From Brucella pituitosa (GTDB lineage Bacteria > Pseudomonadota > Alphaproteobacteria > Rhizobiales > Rhizobiaceae): a DNA stretch of 64,000 nt. The position numbers and the translations under genes are program-made. Location of the stretch: assembly GCF_003049685.1 (NCBI RefSeq), contig NZ_PYSY02000002.1, positions 1,600,001 to 1,664,000 on the forward strand. The letters are read 5' to 3'. The first letter of the stretch is position 1. Every line of letters starts with the position of its first letter. Below are positions 32,699 through 40,524 of the stretch, piece by piece. Below the pieces are notes generated by a model. The model was not told the DNA's origin and searched no databases. It was given only the letters and a program-made list of their open reading frames with translations.

Positions 32699-33607
32699 TT
32701 AAGCATTCTCGATCTTGTTCAGAAACGTCGAAACTGTCTTCATACAGAGATCGCGTTCTTCCACATGTGGCATGTGGCTCGATTCCTCGAAAAGCACCCA
32801 TTCACTACCCGGAACATTATCGACGTAAGGTTTGACCACTAAAGGGGTAGCCTCGTCATAACGACCGGAGATGACAAGTGTTGGTGCTTGAATGTGGTTG
32901 AGGCGGTCTTCAATCGTCCAGTCCTTCATCGTGCCAATCACGTGAAATTCGGTCGGGCCATTCATGTTGCGATAGACGGTATTGTCTTCGTCCATGATGG
33001 CAAAGGTTCGCGCGACTTCCGTTGGCCAAGGGCTCACGCGGCAGACATGCCGGTCGTAGAATACCCTTGAGGCGGCGATATATTCCGGATCGGTCAGCGT
33101 GCCTGCTTCTTCGTGTTTCAACAAAGTCTGTTGTACATCTGAAGGAAGTTCGAGCCGCAAGCGGTTGGCCTCCGCGACCCATGTCCGCATATTGGCAGGT
33201 GAGTTGGCGATGACCAATGCTTTAAGGCCAGTCGGTCTTTGCACGGCATGTTCCGCGCCCAGTATTCCGCCCCATGATTGTCCCAGATAGGCATAGCGAT
33301 CCTGAATGCCGAGATGTGTCAGAAGATTATCCAGCTCTTCCAGAAACAAATCCACGGTCCAGAAATCGGGGCCTTTATCTGGAAGACGTGTGGAGTTTCC
33401 GTTGCCGAGCTGATCGTAATGAATGACTGCACGACCATCGAGTGCTGCAATGTCCTTGAAAGCATCTACATAATCATGCGTGCAGCCGGGGCCGCCATGA
33501 GCGACAACAAGCGGGAGTTTTTCTGAATTGAGTGAGCCGGTAATGCGATACCACGTCCGGTAATCACGGAAGGGGGCAAAGCCTTCCGTCTGATTGATTA
33601 AAGCCAA
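32699..33607 (-). CDS. Proline-iminopeptidase-family hydrolase (PipA-like)
   Basis: A 302-residue alpha/beta hydrolase of peptidase family S33. The oxyanion region is VVAHGGPGCTHDY, the nucleophile elbow GQSWGG (Ser), the acid lies in ISGRYDEATP (Asp) and the base in EESSHMPHVEE (His). No signal peptide, so cytoplasmic. Family members release N-terminal proline or hydrolyse amino-acid amides. Start codon is TTG 33607 behind GGAGG. It lies downstream of, and on the same strand as, the LuxR solo, with a dyad at 33666-33685 in its promoter: the classic pip gene beside a plant-responsive LuxR. The second copy is at 34540. Confidence 0.9.
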   Translation of the reverse strand: MALINQTEGFAPFRDYRTWYRITGSLNSEKLPLVVAHGGPGCTHDYVDAFKDIAALDGRAVIHYDQLGNGNSTRLPDKGPDFWTVDLFLEELDNLLTHLGIQDRYAYLGQSWGGILGAEHAVQRPTGLKALVIANSPANMRTWVAEANRLRLELPSDVQQTLLKHEEAGTLTDPEYIAASRVFYDRHVCRVSPWPTEVARTFAIMDEDNTVYRNMNGPTEFHVIGTMKDWTIEDRLNHIQAPTLVISGRYDEATPLVVKPYVDNVPGSEWVLFEESSHMPHVEERDLCMKTVSTFLNKIENA

Positions 33608-33665
33608 TTTGGTCCTCCATTTGTCTGTTTTTGGAGAACCATAGCGCCGCTTTTTTGGCTGCGGC

Positions 33666-33685
33666 AGCTATCATAACTTATAGGT
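33666..33685 (-). promoter_or_regulatory. lux-box-like dyad upstream of the first pip gene
   Basis: A 20-bp imperfect palindrome with core CTAT-N8-ATAG (plus strand AGCTATCATAACTTATAGGT). It lies between the luxR stop and the pip start, with 22 bases to a possible TATGGT -10 on the minus strand. That spacing would suit a LuxR-type activator overlapping the -35 region. A related box occurs at 34482-34501. Confidence 0.55.
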
Positions 33686-34452
33686 CAGGCATCGAGCAGC
33701 CGCGCACGCGTCGCCCGTACAACGGCCTGAGTACGGTTTTTTGCACCCAGTTTTTTGGCTGCCGCGTTAAGATGCATCACCACTGTTGGAACGGATCTGT
33801 CGATGATGCGTGAGATTTCTTTCGCTGAGAGGCCTTCTGCCGCATAACGCAGACATTCACGCTCGCGAACTGTGAGATGCACCTTGCCAATGCCGCGAAT
33901 ATGCTCGTCAAAAAGCTCATATGCACTTTGATGGAAAATCTGTGCCATCAGATTGAAATCGGCCACATAGCGTAAAGCGCGCTGTCTGAAGTCGGATCGT
34001 GGACCGGAAAATACGCCTGTGACGGTTGCATAATCGCCATGTGGCATATGAATGGGAACGGTGACGCCTGCAGATATATCGCGCTCATGAAGATAGTTTG
34101 CGACGGGTGCCGTGTCTTCCGTCATGAATTCCTGCAGCAGCGATTCAGCTCCCTCATCATAATTCCAGAAGAATGGGACTGATGCCCTGCAGGCAAGACG
34201 CTGCACGGGGTCGATGCGGAAATAGCCCTTTTCTGCCCAGAATTCGAACATGTCATCGCTGATATTGCGCAGTTTCATCAGCGATGGACCCATCATGTCG
34301 CCATTCATGTCGAAAGCGGATGGGGTGTAATCGTAGATGAGGGCCTCGAAGCCCAGAGGCTTCATAGCCTGAAATATCTCATCAATGCGCCCGTCGAGCG
34401 TCTGGTGAGCAGTAAAATTTTGTCTGAAGGTCTCAATCTCGTCTCGCATCAT
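33685..34452 (-). CDS. LuxR solo of the plant-responsive (OryR/PipR) type
   Basis: A 255-residue regulator with an N-terminal autoinducer-binding domain (about 20-165) and a C-terminal LuxR HTH (about 190-250, LTVRERECLRYAAEGLSAKE). Of the six residues conserved in AHL-binding LuxR proteins, Asp81, Pro82, Trp96 and Gly129 are kept. The positions equal to Trp57 and Tyr61 of TraR are Met68 and Trp72. This exact pair of changes defines the subfamily that senses plant-derived compounds. No luxI is in the window. It lies between two pip genes, next to a peptide importer, as in the PipR locus of Pseudomonas. It probably activates both pip promoters. Confidence 0.9.
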   Translation of the reverse strand: MMRDEIETFRQNFTAHQTLDGRIDEIFQAMKPLGFEALIYDYTPSAFDMNGDMMGPSLMKLRNISDDMFEFWAEKGYFRIDPVQRLACRASVPFFWNYDEGAESLLQEFMTEDTAPVANYLHERDISAGVTVPIHMPHGDYATVTGVFSGPRSDFRQRALRYVADFNLMAQIFHQSAYELFDEHIRGIGKVHLTVRERECLRYAAEGLSAKEISRIIDRSVPTVVMHLNAAAKKLGAKNRTQAVVRATRARLLDA

Positions 34453-34481
34453 GGTCTCCGAAACCTGACCCCAAGATTACA

Positions 34482-38957: not shown

Positions 38958-38958
38958 A

Positions 38959-38980
38959 CACGCATCGAAAACGATGTGTG
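38959..38980 (+). promoter_or_regulatory. Intercistronic hairpin before the peptide-binding protein gene
   Basis: CACGCATCG (38959-38967) pairs with CGATGTGTG (38972-38980) around an AAAA loop, nine pairs including one G-U, in the 52-base gap between the ATPase and binding-protein genes. There is no T-run, so it is more likely an RNA-processing or stability element than a terminator. Confidence 0.5.
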
Positions 38981-39009
38981 ACTAACCAAAAATATAAGGG
39001 GAAATACAC

Positions 39010-40524
39010 ATGCTTAAAAAATGGATGAAGATCGGCCTCGTCACTGTCATGACGAGCATGACATTTGGTGCAGCACTTGCCGAAGCGGCGGGTGTTTTGA
39101 CAATCGGACGACGCGAGGATTCCTCTACTTTCGATCCAATCAAGACCGCACAGAATATCGACAACTGGGTGTTCTCAAACGTTTATGATGTGCTGGTGCG
39201 GGTCGATAAGACAGGCACGAAACTCGAGCCTGGTCTTGCTGAAAGCTGGACGATTTCGGATGACGGTCTCACCTATACGTTCAAGCTGCGCGATGCTAAA
39301 TTCTCGGATGGATCGCCGATCACAGCCGATGATGCCGCTTTTTCGCTTCTGCGTATTCGCGACAATCCAGCTTCGCTTTGGAGCGACTCTTATAAGGTCG
39401 TGGACACTGCCGAAGCTGCTGACCCGCATACGCTGGTCGTTAAACTGAAAACGCCTTCCGCGCCATTCCTGTCCACCCTGGCACTCCCCAATGTTTCAGT
39501 TCTTTCCAAGAAGGGACTGGAGGAGTTGGGTGAGGACGGCTACGCAGAAAAGCCAGTGGCGTCAGGTGCGTTTGTGGTGGACGAATGGCGTCGTGGTGAT
39601 CGTGTCATTCTGAAAAAGAATCCGAATTTCTGGGAGGCGGATCGTGTCAAGCTTGACGGGGTCGAGTGGATCTCTGTTCCTGACGATAATACGCGTATGC
39701 TCAACGTACAGGCCGGTCAGCTGGATGCCGCGATTTTTGTACCGTTCTCGCGCGTGGCAGAGCTGAAAAAAGACCCGAATTTGAAGGTTCTCGAAGATAC
39801 CTCCACACGCGAAGATCATCTTCTGATCAATCATGAGCATGGTGCACTCGCGAAGAAGGAAGTCCGTCAGGCGCTGGACATGGCGATCGACAAGCAGTCG
39901 ATTGTCGATACCGTGACATTCGGGATTGGTCAGGTTGCAAATTCCTACATACCGAAGGGCGCTCTGTATCATTACGCGGACAATCTCAAGCGTCCGTATG
40001 ATCCGGAAAAAGCCAAGCAGATGCTGGCCGATGCTGGCGCATCGGGCTTGTCGCTCAATTATATCGTCAATGCTGGCAACGAAACGGACGAACAGATCGC
40101 AGTTCTTCTACAACAACAGCTTCAGAAGGCAGGTGTTACCGTCAACCTCCAGAAAGTCGACCCCAGCCAGAGCTGGGATATGTTGATTGCTGGTGATTAC
40201 GATATCTCCGTCATGTACTGGACCAATGACGTTCTGGACCCCGACCAGAAGACCACATTCGTTTTGGGGCACGATACCAATATGAATTATATGACCCGCT
40301 ATAACAATGAGAAGGTAAAGGACCTCGTTGCAGCAGCGCGTCTGGAGCTTGATCCAAAGAAGCGTGAGGCCATGTATATCGATCTTCAGAAAATGGCGAA
40401 GGACGACGTCAACTGGATCGATCTCTATTACAGCCCTTATATCAATGTCACCGGCAAGAACATTGAGAACTTCTATCAGAACCCGCTTGGTCGTTTCTTC
40501 CTCGAAGATACTGTGAAGAACTAA
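39010..40524 (+). CDS. Peptide ABC transporter substrate-binding protein (family 5)
   Basis: A 504-residue periplasmic protein. Signal peptide: KKWMKIGLVTVMTSMTFGAA with cleavage after ALAEA or nearby. SBP_bac_5 pattern: GRREDSSTFDPIKTAQNIDN, LEPGLAESWTISDDGLTYTF, FKLRDAKFSDGSPITADDAAF and VASGAFVVDEWRRGD. It delivers dipeptides, oligopeptides or amino-acid amides to the DppBC channel. It closes the pip-ABC gene set; a terminator follows at 40552. Confidence 0.94.
   Translation: MLKKWMKIGLVTVMTSMTFGAALAEAAGVLTIGRREDSSTFDPIKTAQNIDNWVFSNVYDVLVRVDKTGTKLEPGLAESWTISDDGLTYTFKLRDAKFSDGSPITADDAAFSLLRIRDNPASLWSDSYKVVDTAEAADPHTLVVKLKTPSAPFLSTLALPNVSVLSKKGLEELGEDGYAEKPVASGAFVVDEWRRGDRVILKKNPNFWEADRVKLDGVEWISVPDDNTRMLNVQAGQLDAAIFVPFSRVAELKKDPNLKVLEDTSTREDHLLINHEHGALAKKEVRQALDMAIDKQSIVDTVTFGIGQVANSYIPKGALYHYADNLKRPYDPEKAKQMLADAGASGLSLNYIVNAGNETDEQIAVLLQQQLQKAGVTVNLQKVDPSQSWDMLIAGDYDISVMYWTNDVLDPDQKTTFVLGHDTNMNYMTRYNNEKVKDLVAAARLELDPKKREAMYIDLQKMAKDDVNWIDLYYSPYINVTGKNIENFYQNPLGRFFLEDTVKN

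What the first reader, a model, noticed from the sequence alone, without database searches (positions are those of the whole stretch)
32699..40524. Plant-signal-type LuxR solo flanked by two pip genes and a peptide importer
The LuxR protein at 33685-34452 has Met68 and Trp72 at the two ligand-pocket positions where AHL receptors have Trp and Tyr; the other four signature residues (Asp81, Pro82, Trp96, Gly129) are kept. That is the signature of the OryR/XccR/PsoR/NesR/PipR subfamily, whose members respond to plant compounds rather than AHLs. It lies between two paralogous proline-iminopeptidase genes, next to a dipeptide-type ABC importer, the same gene content as the PipR-PipA locus of Pseudomonas (established knowledge). 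Inference: this bacterium senses a plant-derived amide or peptide-like molecule, imports it through DppBCDF-like proteins and cleaves it with the Pip enzymes.
Basis: partly seen in the sequence, partly recalled or inferred. Interest (0 to 1): 0.75.

Follow-up and report, generated by a model that had tools for sequence, protein, structure and literature searches.

The report
Known plant-signal sensor cassette in Ochrobactrum-type Brucella
A soil-type Brucella (former Ochrobactrum) carries the same sensor, importer and peptidase cassette that rhizobia and plant-dwelling Pseudomonas use to detect, and probably break down, a small plant-derived molecule; it is a good example of a known kind, not a new one.

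Summary
The LuxR-type protein (33685-34452, minus strand) has the Met68/Trp72 signature, lies between two proline-iminopeptidase-family genes, and adjoins a four-gene dipeptide-type ABC importer. The genome is a Brucella of the former Ochrobactrum kind. All 80 Rhizobiales loci returned by one capped search keep the six companion genes in the same order and orientation; one is the published nesR gene of Ensifer aridi. A tree places the window protein with NesR-type solos, apart from the genome's own BlxR-type paralog. The importer's binding protein is 75% identical to AapF, the HEHEAA-binding protein of the PipR system. No luxI was found. New here: two lux-type boxes (CTATMA-N4-TKATAG), one before the pipA-like gene and one in the divergent luxR/aapA-type promoter region, are the only exact matches in the 5.5 Mb genome, and a looser form recurs in most distant homologous loci. 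The LuxR gene is in 4 of 35 genomes of the genus, at different chromosomal sites. Ligand, AHL-blindness and HEHEAA binding are inference. A W57M/Y61W solo in Ochrobactrum pituitosum was already published in 2021. Verdict: new member of a known kind, modest interest.

The parts
32699..33607 (-). pip1: PipA-type proline-iminopeptidase-family hydrolase (TTG start), downstream of luxR
   Evidence: TIGR01250 267 bits; best solved relative 7a6g 'Putative Proline iminopeptidase' E 1.7e-149; GQSWGG, GRYDEATP, SHMP motifs
33668..33683 (.). predicted lux/pip box 1 (CTATAAGTTATGATAG on the minus strand), centred 68.5 bases upstream of the pip1 start, one base past the luxR stop codon
   Evidence: same element in 81 of 83 luxR-pip1 regions by script, plus the window itself, which the script's regex missed; L070 is a true miss
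33685..34452 (-). luxR solo of the OryR/PipR/NesR subfamily (M68/W72 signature)
34484..34499 (.). predicted lux/pip box 2 in the divergent luxR/pip2 promoter region, 39.5 bases from the luxR ATG and 48.5 from the pip2 ATG (box centre)
   Evidence: CTAT-N8-ATAG in 83 of 83 upstream regions
34540..35487 (+). pip2: AapA-type paralog, first gene of the importer operon (ATG start chosen over the GTG at 34405)
   Evidence: TIGR01250 270 bits; 35% identical to pip1; GHSWGG, GEHDELTP, SHMP
35519..36457 (+). ABC permease (DppB/AapB-like)
   Evidence: PF00528
36454..37305 (+). ABC permease (DppC/AapC-like)
   Evidence: PF00528, PF12911
37302..38957 (+). ABC ATPase with two fused nucleotide-binding domains
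   Evidence: PF00005, two stretches
39010..40524 (+). substrate-binding protein, ortholog of AapF
   Evidence: 361/479 identical to the AapF chain of PDB 7kz8/7kz9
32660..40525 (.). extent of the cassette, from alignments with genomes G031 and G024, in which the window's surroundings (24001-56000 compared) do not match outside it, apart from one 122-base ABC-type stretch in G031

Best explanation
This is a self-contained PipR/NesR-type sensing cassette. The AapF-like binding protein and its ABC importer bring a small peptide-like or amide-like compound, probably of plant origin, into the cell. The LuxR solo binds it in a pocket altered by W57M and Y61W, so it does not answer to AHLs. It then activates pip1 from one lux-type box and the pip2-importer operon, and possibly its own gene, from a second box. 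Pip1 and Pip2 hydrolyse the ligand or a product of it and close a negative feedback loop. Shown here: gene content, signature, phylogeny, no luxI found, AapF orthology by sequence, and the two conserved boxes. Inferred from PipR of Pseudomonas GM79 and from the Xanthomonas and rhizobial members: import of the ligand, activation, feedback, and the plant source.
For: Signature 6 of 6, and MWDPWG in 80 of 80 named loci. Gln at the position of TraR V73, named as rather specific for the subfamily in PMC3821632, is present (Q84; 80 of 80 and 7 of 7 more distant loci). Gene order is identical in 80 of 80 loci. The four E. aridi nesR deletion primers of PMC8877191 match locus L039 around the orthologous gene, and no other held locus matches all four. 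In the tree the window lies with PAB/NesR proteins, split from BlxR-type paralogs at 100/100. Binding protein 75% identical to AapF. No luxI found in G000, G015, G024 or G031, while the same search finds luxI in the other 4 of the 8 genomes. The boxes fit the CT(N12)AG motif of las and pip boxes (PMC4471428). Box 1 is centred 68.5 bases before the pip1 start, against 71.5 before pipA in GM79 (PMC4981722 passage).
Against: No experiment with this locus. HEHEAA binding does not carry over to every close homolog (PMC10134790). NesR has been linked to stress survival, carbon use and methionine-cycle regulation (PMC3821632 and PMC8877191 passages), which a purely local circuit does not explain. An Ochrobactrum member of this subfamily came from an oligotrophic aquifer (PMC8105983), not a plant. 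Kosakonia PsrR gave no response to plant extract (PMC7301841 passage). Some residues that PMC3821632 gives for OryR differ: Leu at F101 and Met at I110, against Val117 and Ile126 by offset. Leu at A105 (L121 here) is no clean mark either: 3 of 7 distant homologs lack it, and the VjbR-type paralog and 2 of 8 BlxR-type ones have it.
Confidence: 0.75

Rival explanations
1. Same circuit, but the natural cue is a general peptide or amide from soil organic matter or protein breakdown, so the cassette is a substrate-induced scavenging system and not a plant-signal receptor.
For: PipR responds to peptone and to the tripeptide Ser-His-Ser (PMC4981722). A member of the same subfamily was found in Ochrobactrum from an oligotrophic aquifer (PMC8105983). 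The cassette is confined to an importer and two hydrolases, and the only exact boxes in the genome are its own.
Against: The subgroup was detected in bacteria from plant or terrestrial environments (PMC10134790), and HEHEAA acted at about 10 pM according to PMC8105983, far below a nutritional level.
Confidence: 0.3
2. NesR-like wider regulator of stress, carbon use and methionine cycle, with the neighbours only part of its targets.
For: Orthology to nesR of Ensifer; nesR deletion phenotypes in salt, motility and nodulation (PMC8877191 passages).
Against: Only two exact boxes in the genome, both in the cassette; degenerate sites were not searched.
Confidence: 0.12
3. AHL receptor of the VjbR/BlxR kind.
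For: Same Pfam domain PF03472; the genome has VjbR- and BlxR-type genes.
Against: 29% identity to the genome's own two paralogs; tree split 100/100 from the BlxR type; genomic context differs from VjbR (TetR neighbour, L122) and BlxR (methionine synthase neighbour, L121).
Confidence: 0.02

Closest known systems
NesR of Sinorhizobium/Ensifer (PAB LuxR solo, class D, in Table 1 of PMC10134790)
   Same: 68-69% identity to the proteins of S. meliloti 4H41 and E. aridi LMR001, same signature, same neighbours in the same order, same clade in the tree
   Different: host genus Brucella instead of a legume symbiont; flanks outside the cassette were not compared in detail
PipR-PipA-AapA-AapB-F of Pseudomonas sp. 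GM79
   Same: regulator, downstream pip gene, second peptidase plus ABC importer on the other side, box upstream of pipA (PMC4981722); binding protein 75% identical to AapF of Pseudomonas sp. PDC86
   Different: fused ATPase gene instead of two. Four homologs of one genus of another class in the phylum sample, with the same pip neighbours, have Trp and not Met at the first signature site; the PipR sequence itself was not at hand
PAB-type LuxR solo of Ochrobactrum pituitosum SD316 (PMC8105983)
   Same: same genus group, W57M and Y61W, placed with NesR/OryR
   Different: its flanking genes are given only in a figure that is not held, so identity of the cassette was not checked
OryR/XccR of Xanthomonas
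   Same: M/W signature, pip neighbour, pip box of CT(N12)AG type (PMC10134790, PMC4338825, PMC4471428 passages)
   Different: no sequence of these was available for the tree
VjbR and BlxR of Brucella
   Same: same autoinducer-binding domain, homologs found in the same genome
   Different: different clade, context and pocket residues

Membership tests
PAB (OryR/PipR/NesR) LuxR solo | autoinducer-binding domain plus LuxR-type HTH | tested here: met
   PF03472 94 bits, PF00196 52 bits
PAB (OryR/PipR/NesR) LuxR solo | W57M and Y61W with D70, P71, W85, G113 kept | tested here: met
PAB (OryR/PipR/NesR) LuxR solo | PAB-typical second-shell residues of PMC3821632 (Q at V73, L at A105) | tested here: inconclusive
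   Q84 and L121 are present, each 80 of 80; Q84 also 7 of 7 distant loci; but L121 is missing in 3 of those 7 and present in some VjbR/BlxR-type paralogs, and the columns were placed by offset from G129
PAB (OryR/PipR/NesR) LuxR solo | pip gene next to the regulator, peptide importer nearby | tested here: met
PAB (OryR/PipR/NesR) LuxR solo | no cognate luxI | tested here: met
   PF00765: 0 matches in G000; the same search finds it in 4 of the 8 genomes; an earlier own-genome search had no working control
PAB (OryR/PipR/NesR) LuxR solo | phylogenetic placement with the subfamily | tested here: met
   (48 rows); includes the E. aridi nesR product; OryR and PipR themselves not available
PAB (OryR/PipR/NesR) LuxR solo | lux/pip box upstream of pip | tested here: met
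   by sequence only
PAB (OryR/PipR/NesR) LuxR solo | responds to plant extract and not to AHLs | not testable with these tools
   needs reporter assays
AapF-type HEHEAA importer | orthologous binding protein and importer genes | tested here: met
   361/479 identical; operon conserved
AapF-type HEHEAA importer | binds HEHEAA | not testable with these tools
   a close homolog elsewhere does not bind it (PMC10134790)
VjbR/BlxR AHL-type regulators | clade membership and genomic context | tested here: not met
   BlxR type; VjbR type: context and only the quick tree, where its branch is very long

The most novel reading that the evidence does not exclude
The cassette is a catabolic sensor for N-substituted glycine amides. 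HEHEAA, as recalled, is the amide of N-(2-hydroxyethyl)glycine, a secondary-amine amino acid like proline, with ethanolamine. That would explain why iminopeptidases are its universal partners: Pip would split the signal into N-(2-hydroxyethyl)glycine and ethanolamine. In this strain the cassette abuts a DAO-GcvT (dimethylglycine/sarcosine-dehydrogenase-like) enzyme and an electron-transfer flavoprotein (28357-32549) that could oxidise the N-alkylglycine, turning a signal into food. Against it: that neighbour is shared with G015 only, not with G024 or G031.
Probability: 0.07. Interest if true: 0.6.

Novelty: new member of a known kind. Interest (0 to 1): 0.3.

Why it matters
It places a complete plant-signal cassette inside the genus that also holds the brucellosis agents. 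The LuxR ortholog was found in 4 of the genus's 35 held genomes and in none of the six smallest (3.1-3.9 Mb), so it may mark an environmental, probably plant-linked, side of the former Ochrobactrum group. The paired box (CTA-N10-TAG before both transcription units) gives a concrete, testable operator for the family and a way to look for cassettes by DNA alone. The chemistry of the ligand remains the open question, and the AapF ortholog makes it approachable.

Tried and rejected
VjbR/BlxR membership was tested and rejected. A wider regulon was sought by the exact pattern in the whole genome: only the two cassette sites, control 0. Base composition alone would give 0.84 sites per genome, so their position, not their number, carries the weight. 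In a family sample the pattern occurs in 47 of 199 genomes, mostly as scattered sites, and the reversed control also hits many genomes; the match listing was cut. Seven listed genomes show two sites 814-864 bases apart: G000, G077, G141, G287, G507, G540, G607 (spacings recomputed). G507, G540 and G607 were not checked for the luxR gene. Recurrent neighbours outside the cassette: one ORF cluster beside the binding protein in 18 of 80 loci and one beside pip1 in 17 of 80. By position and by eye they are the YghU-type glutathione-dependent oxidoreductase and the acetamidase/formamidase of R. etli p42b; this was not checked by alignment, and shared ancestry explains them at least as well as function. 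Two larger clusters (30 and 23 loci) looked mixed or like shadow frames and were not examined. The sigma-70 and terminator scan was about at chance and not used. No structure was predicted. The first luxI search, own genome only, rang in no control genome and was repeated with genomes that ring.

Rows dropped: the first tree used 52 of 108 rows after removing near-copies (L070 left out before). The second used 48, after removing near-copies and L003, L088, L107, L104, L106 and L070 as long or broken. L003, the VjbR-type row, is therefore tested only in the quick tree, where long branches make its place unsure. One search ended in a script error after its tables were printed. Of its two misses in luxR-pip1 regions, the window's own box 1 was missed only because the regex demanded six flanking bases, while L070 is a true miss: a metagenome contig with genes broken in frame and a box-like stretch that does not fit the pattern. 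The 80 loci are a capped, pattern-selected set; one pattern (PFFWNYDE) includes the W96 residue, so the 80 of 80 tally is not an unbiased sample. The order tally set no coverage limit; genes are under 80% covered in L016 (pip1, contig end), L035 (ATPase) and L070 (pip1, permease).

Papers: the HEHEAA and AapF papers (Coutinho 2018, Luo 2021) are not held (one look-up each) and were seen only as entries in the reference list of PMC10134790. Seen as passages only: PMC4981722, PMC7301841, PMC4399327, PMC4471428, PMC4338825, PMC3821632, PMC8877191, PMC11168924. PMC10134790: abstract, outline, passages and part of the reference list. PMC8105983: passages and the whole results section. Searches for a report of this cassette in Brucella or Ochrobactrum were made; PMC8105983 was listed.
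Full report
What is there. The window is G000:C2:1600001-1664000 of a 5.5 Mb genome. The closest named relative of the LuxR protein is from Brucella thiophenivorans DSM 7216 (93%). Genome G031, of the same genus code as G000, carries that very contig: equal length, 138,431 bases, and 10,966 of 10,966 compared bases identical. 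So the organism is a Brucella of the former Ochrobactrum kind. On the minus strand lie luxR (33685-34452) and, downstream, pip1 (32699-33607). Divergently on the plus strand lie pip2 (34540-35487), two permeases, one ATPase gene with two ABC domains, and an SBP_bac_5 binding protein (39010-40524).

Is it a unit? All 80 Rhizobiales loci returned by the capped search (59-93% LuxR identity) carry pip1, pip2, both permeases, ATPase and binding protein in the same order and orientation (partial matches in L016, L035 and L070). Identities to the window range from 76 to 90% for pip1 and from 81 to 97% for the binding protein. In genomes G031 and G024 of the same genus the similarity to the window starts at 32660 or 32730 and stops at 40522 or 40525, apart from one 122-base ABC-type stretch in G031; in G015 it continues into the flanks. 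The 4 kb beside the binding protein in G024 has no match in the window's genome. That of G031 matches it only through stretches of an ABC-ATPase-like segment. The other flank was not searched this way. The cassette thus sits at different places within one genus, which suggests movement or relocation.

Distribution. In 35 held genomes of the genus, 4 (own included) have a LuxR of 93% or more; the next best by E-value is 28%. The binding protein is found in the same 4. A fifth genome, G006, has only its C-terminal half (98%) at the start of a contig, followed by the window's tenA and 41516 genes, which looks like a remnant or an assembly break. On plasmids the LuxR has relatives in 153 of 72,556 records, 123 of them Rhizobium.

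Family. The signature MWDPWG is found in 80 of 80 named loci, 3 of 3 further Brucella-genus loci (L086 repeats L004) and 3 of 3 plasmid loci read. The other 12 hits of the phylum sample (398 genomes, 13 with a match at E 1e-20, own included) give 7 MWDPWG, 4 WWDPWG and 1 IYDPYG. Ten genus paralogs give 8 WYDPWG, 1 WYDPRF and 1 FWDQWG. Of further residues discussed in PMC3821632 (passages), Q84 fits well (80 of 80, and 7 of 7 distant loci). L121 fits in the window, but 3 of 7 distant loci lack it and some paralogs have it. Val117 and Ile126 differ from what the paper gives for OryR. In a 48-row maximum-likelihood tree the PAB proteins are split from the BlxR-type paralogs at 100/100. The Brucella proteins form one clade (100/99) among the rhizobial proteins. 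The genome's other two autoinducer-domain regulators lie beside methionine synthase (L121, read by eye) and beside a TetR gene (L122), the contexts that PMC4338825 gives for BlxR and VjbR. The window gene is neither.

Link to a named gene. Four primer cores of the nesR deletion in Ensifer aridi LMR001 (PMC8877191, passages) match locus L039 at 9857, 10024, 10792 and 10933, around its LuxR gene at 10001-10762. Two of them also match L056 and one L040, but only L039 matches all four. The window protein is 69% identical to that gene's product.

Importer. The binding protein is 361/479 (75%) identical to AapF (PDB 7kz8, 7kz9). A figure legend in PMC11168924 describes 7KZ9 as Pseudomonas sp. PDC86 AapF with HEHEAA. 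This is strong orthology but not proof of ligand: PMC10134790 (passages) reports a close homolog that does not bind HEHEAA.

Operators. The element CTAT-N8-ATAG is present in 83 of 83 regions upstream of luxR, and in 81 of 83 luxR-pip1 regions by script. The window itself, missed by the regex, has it too; L070 does not. Letter shuffles give a mean of 0.17 and 0.08 of 83. These loci are related, so descent contributes. In seven more distant loci the looser CTA-N10-TAG is in 6 of 7 of each region, against 0.18 and 0.23 expected. Four of the seven are near-copies; the misses are L104 (luxR-pip1) and L105 (upstream). In the window's whole genome the pattern CTATMANNNNTKATAG occurs twice, at exactly these two places, where 0.84 would be expected by composition. 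It fits the CT(N12)AG feature of las and pip boxes (PMC4471428, passage). The putative PsrR boxes printed in PMC7301841 do not have it. Box 1 is centred 68.5 bases before the pip1 start; the GM79 pipA site is at 71.5 (PMC4981722, passage).

Solo status. No PF00765 luxI in G000, G015, G024 or G031; the same search finds one or more in the other four of the 8 genomes.

Mechanism. By analogy with PipR (PMC4981722, passages): an importer mutant loses the response, peptidase mutants over-respond, and the box is needed. The model is therefore import, binding, activation of pip1 and of the pip2-importer operon, and hydrolysis as negative feedback. In GM79 the effect on aapA was small, so control of the pip2 operon through box 2 is the weaker half. 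For this genome everything after the sequence level is inference.

Novelty. The subfamily, its circuit and its spread over Alpha- and Gammaproteobacteria are published (PMC4338825, PMC10134790; passages). A W57M/Y61W solo placed with PAB solos has been reported from Ochrobactrum pituitosum SD316 (PMC8105983, results section read).

Noticed in passing
window 19137-32549: Likely betaine/N-methylglycine C1 island: NADH:flavin oxidoreductase (19137-21188), formyl-THF deformylase PurU (25685-27268), LysR (27289-28212), DAO+GcvT enzyme (28357-30798), EtfB/EtfA (30849-32549). Its DAO-GcvT and Etf part abuts the cassette here and in G015.
   Followed up: partly
window 31617-32549: The etfA gene is a second copy, 99% identical at protein level to one at G000:C1:2311707-2312630.
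   Followed up: no
G006:C73:138-872 (L117): C-terminal half of the AapF-like gene (98%) at a contig start, with the window's tenA and 41516 neighbours but no luxR ortholog found in that genome: remnant or assembly break.
   Followed up: partly
L100-L103: Pip-flanked LuxR solos of one genus in another class keep Trp at the first signature site and have Trp at the second (W/W), so Y61W and not W57M is the steadier mark.
   Followed up: partly
L088: LuxR-type solo in G006 with the odd signature F/W/D/Q/W/G, upstream of an ORF that looks like a transposase by eye.
   Followed up: no
window 40584-41324: TENA/THI-4 family gene directly after the cassette, convergent with the binding-protein gene; also beside it in G015.
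   Followed up: no
window 42758-51312: A second dipeptide-type ABC gene set with a gamma-glutamyltranspeptidase (44703-46304) and a polysaccharide-deacetylase-domain gene (46240-47151).
   Followed up: no
window 53997-56786: Amidohydrolase scoring below cutoff to an Xaa-Pro dipeptidase model, and an MlrC-like gene far below cutoff.
   Followed up: no
L105 (G408) and L118 (Rahnella plasmid): Cassettes without the AapA-type peptidase between importer and luxR; in the Rahnella record the two ATPases are separate genes.
   Followed up: partly
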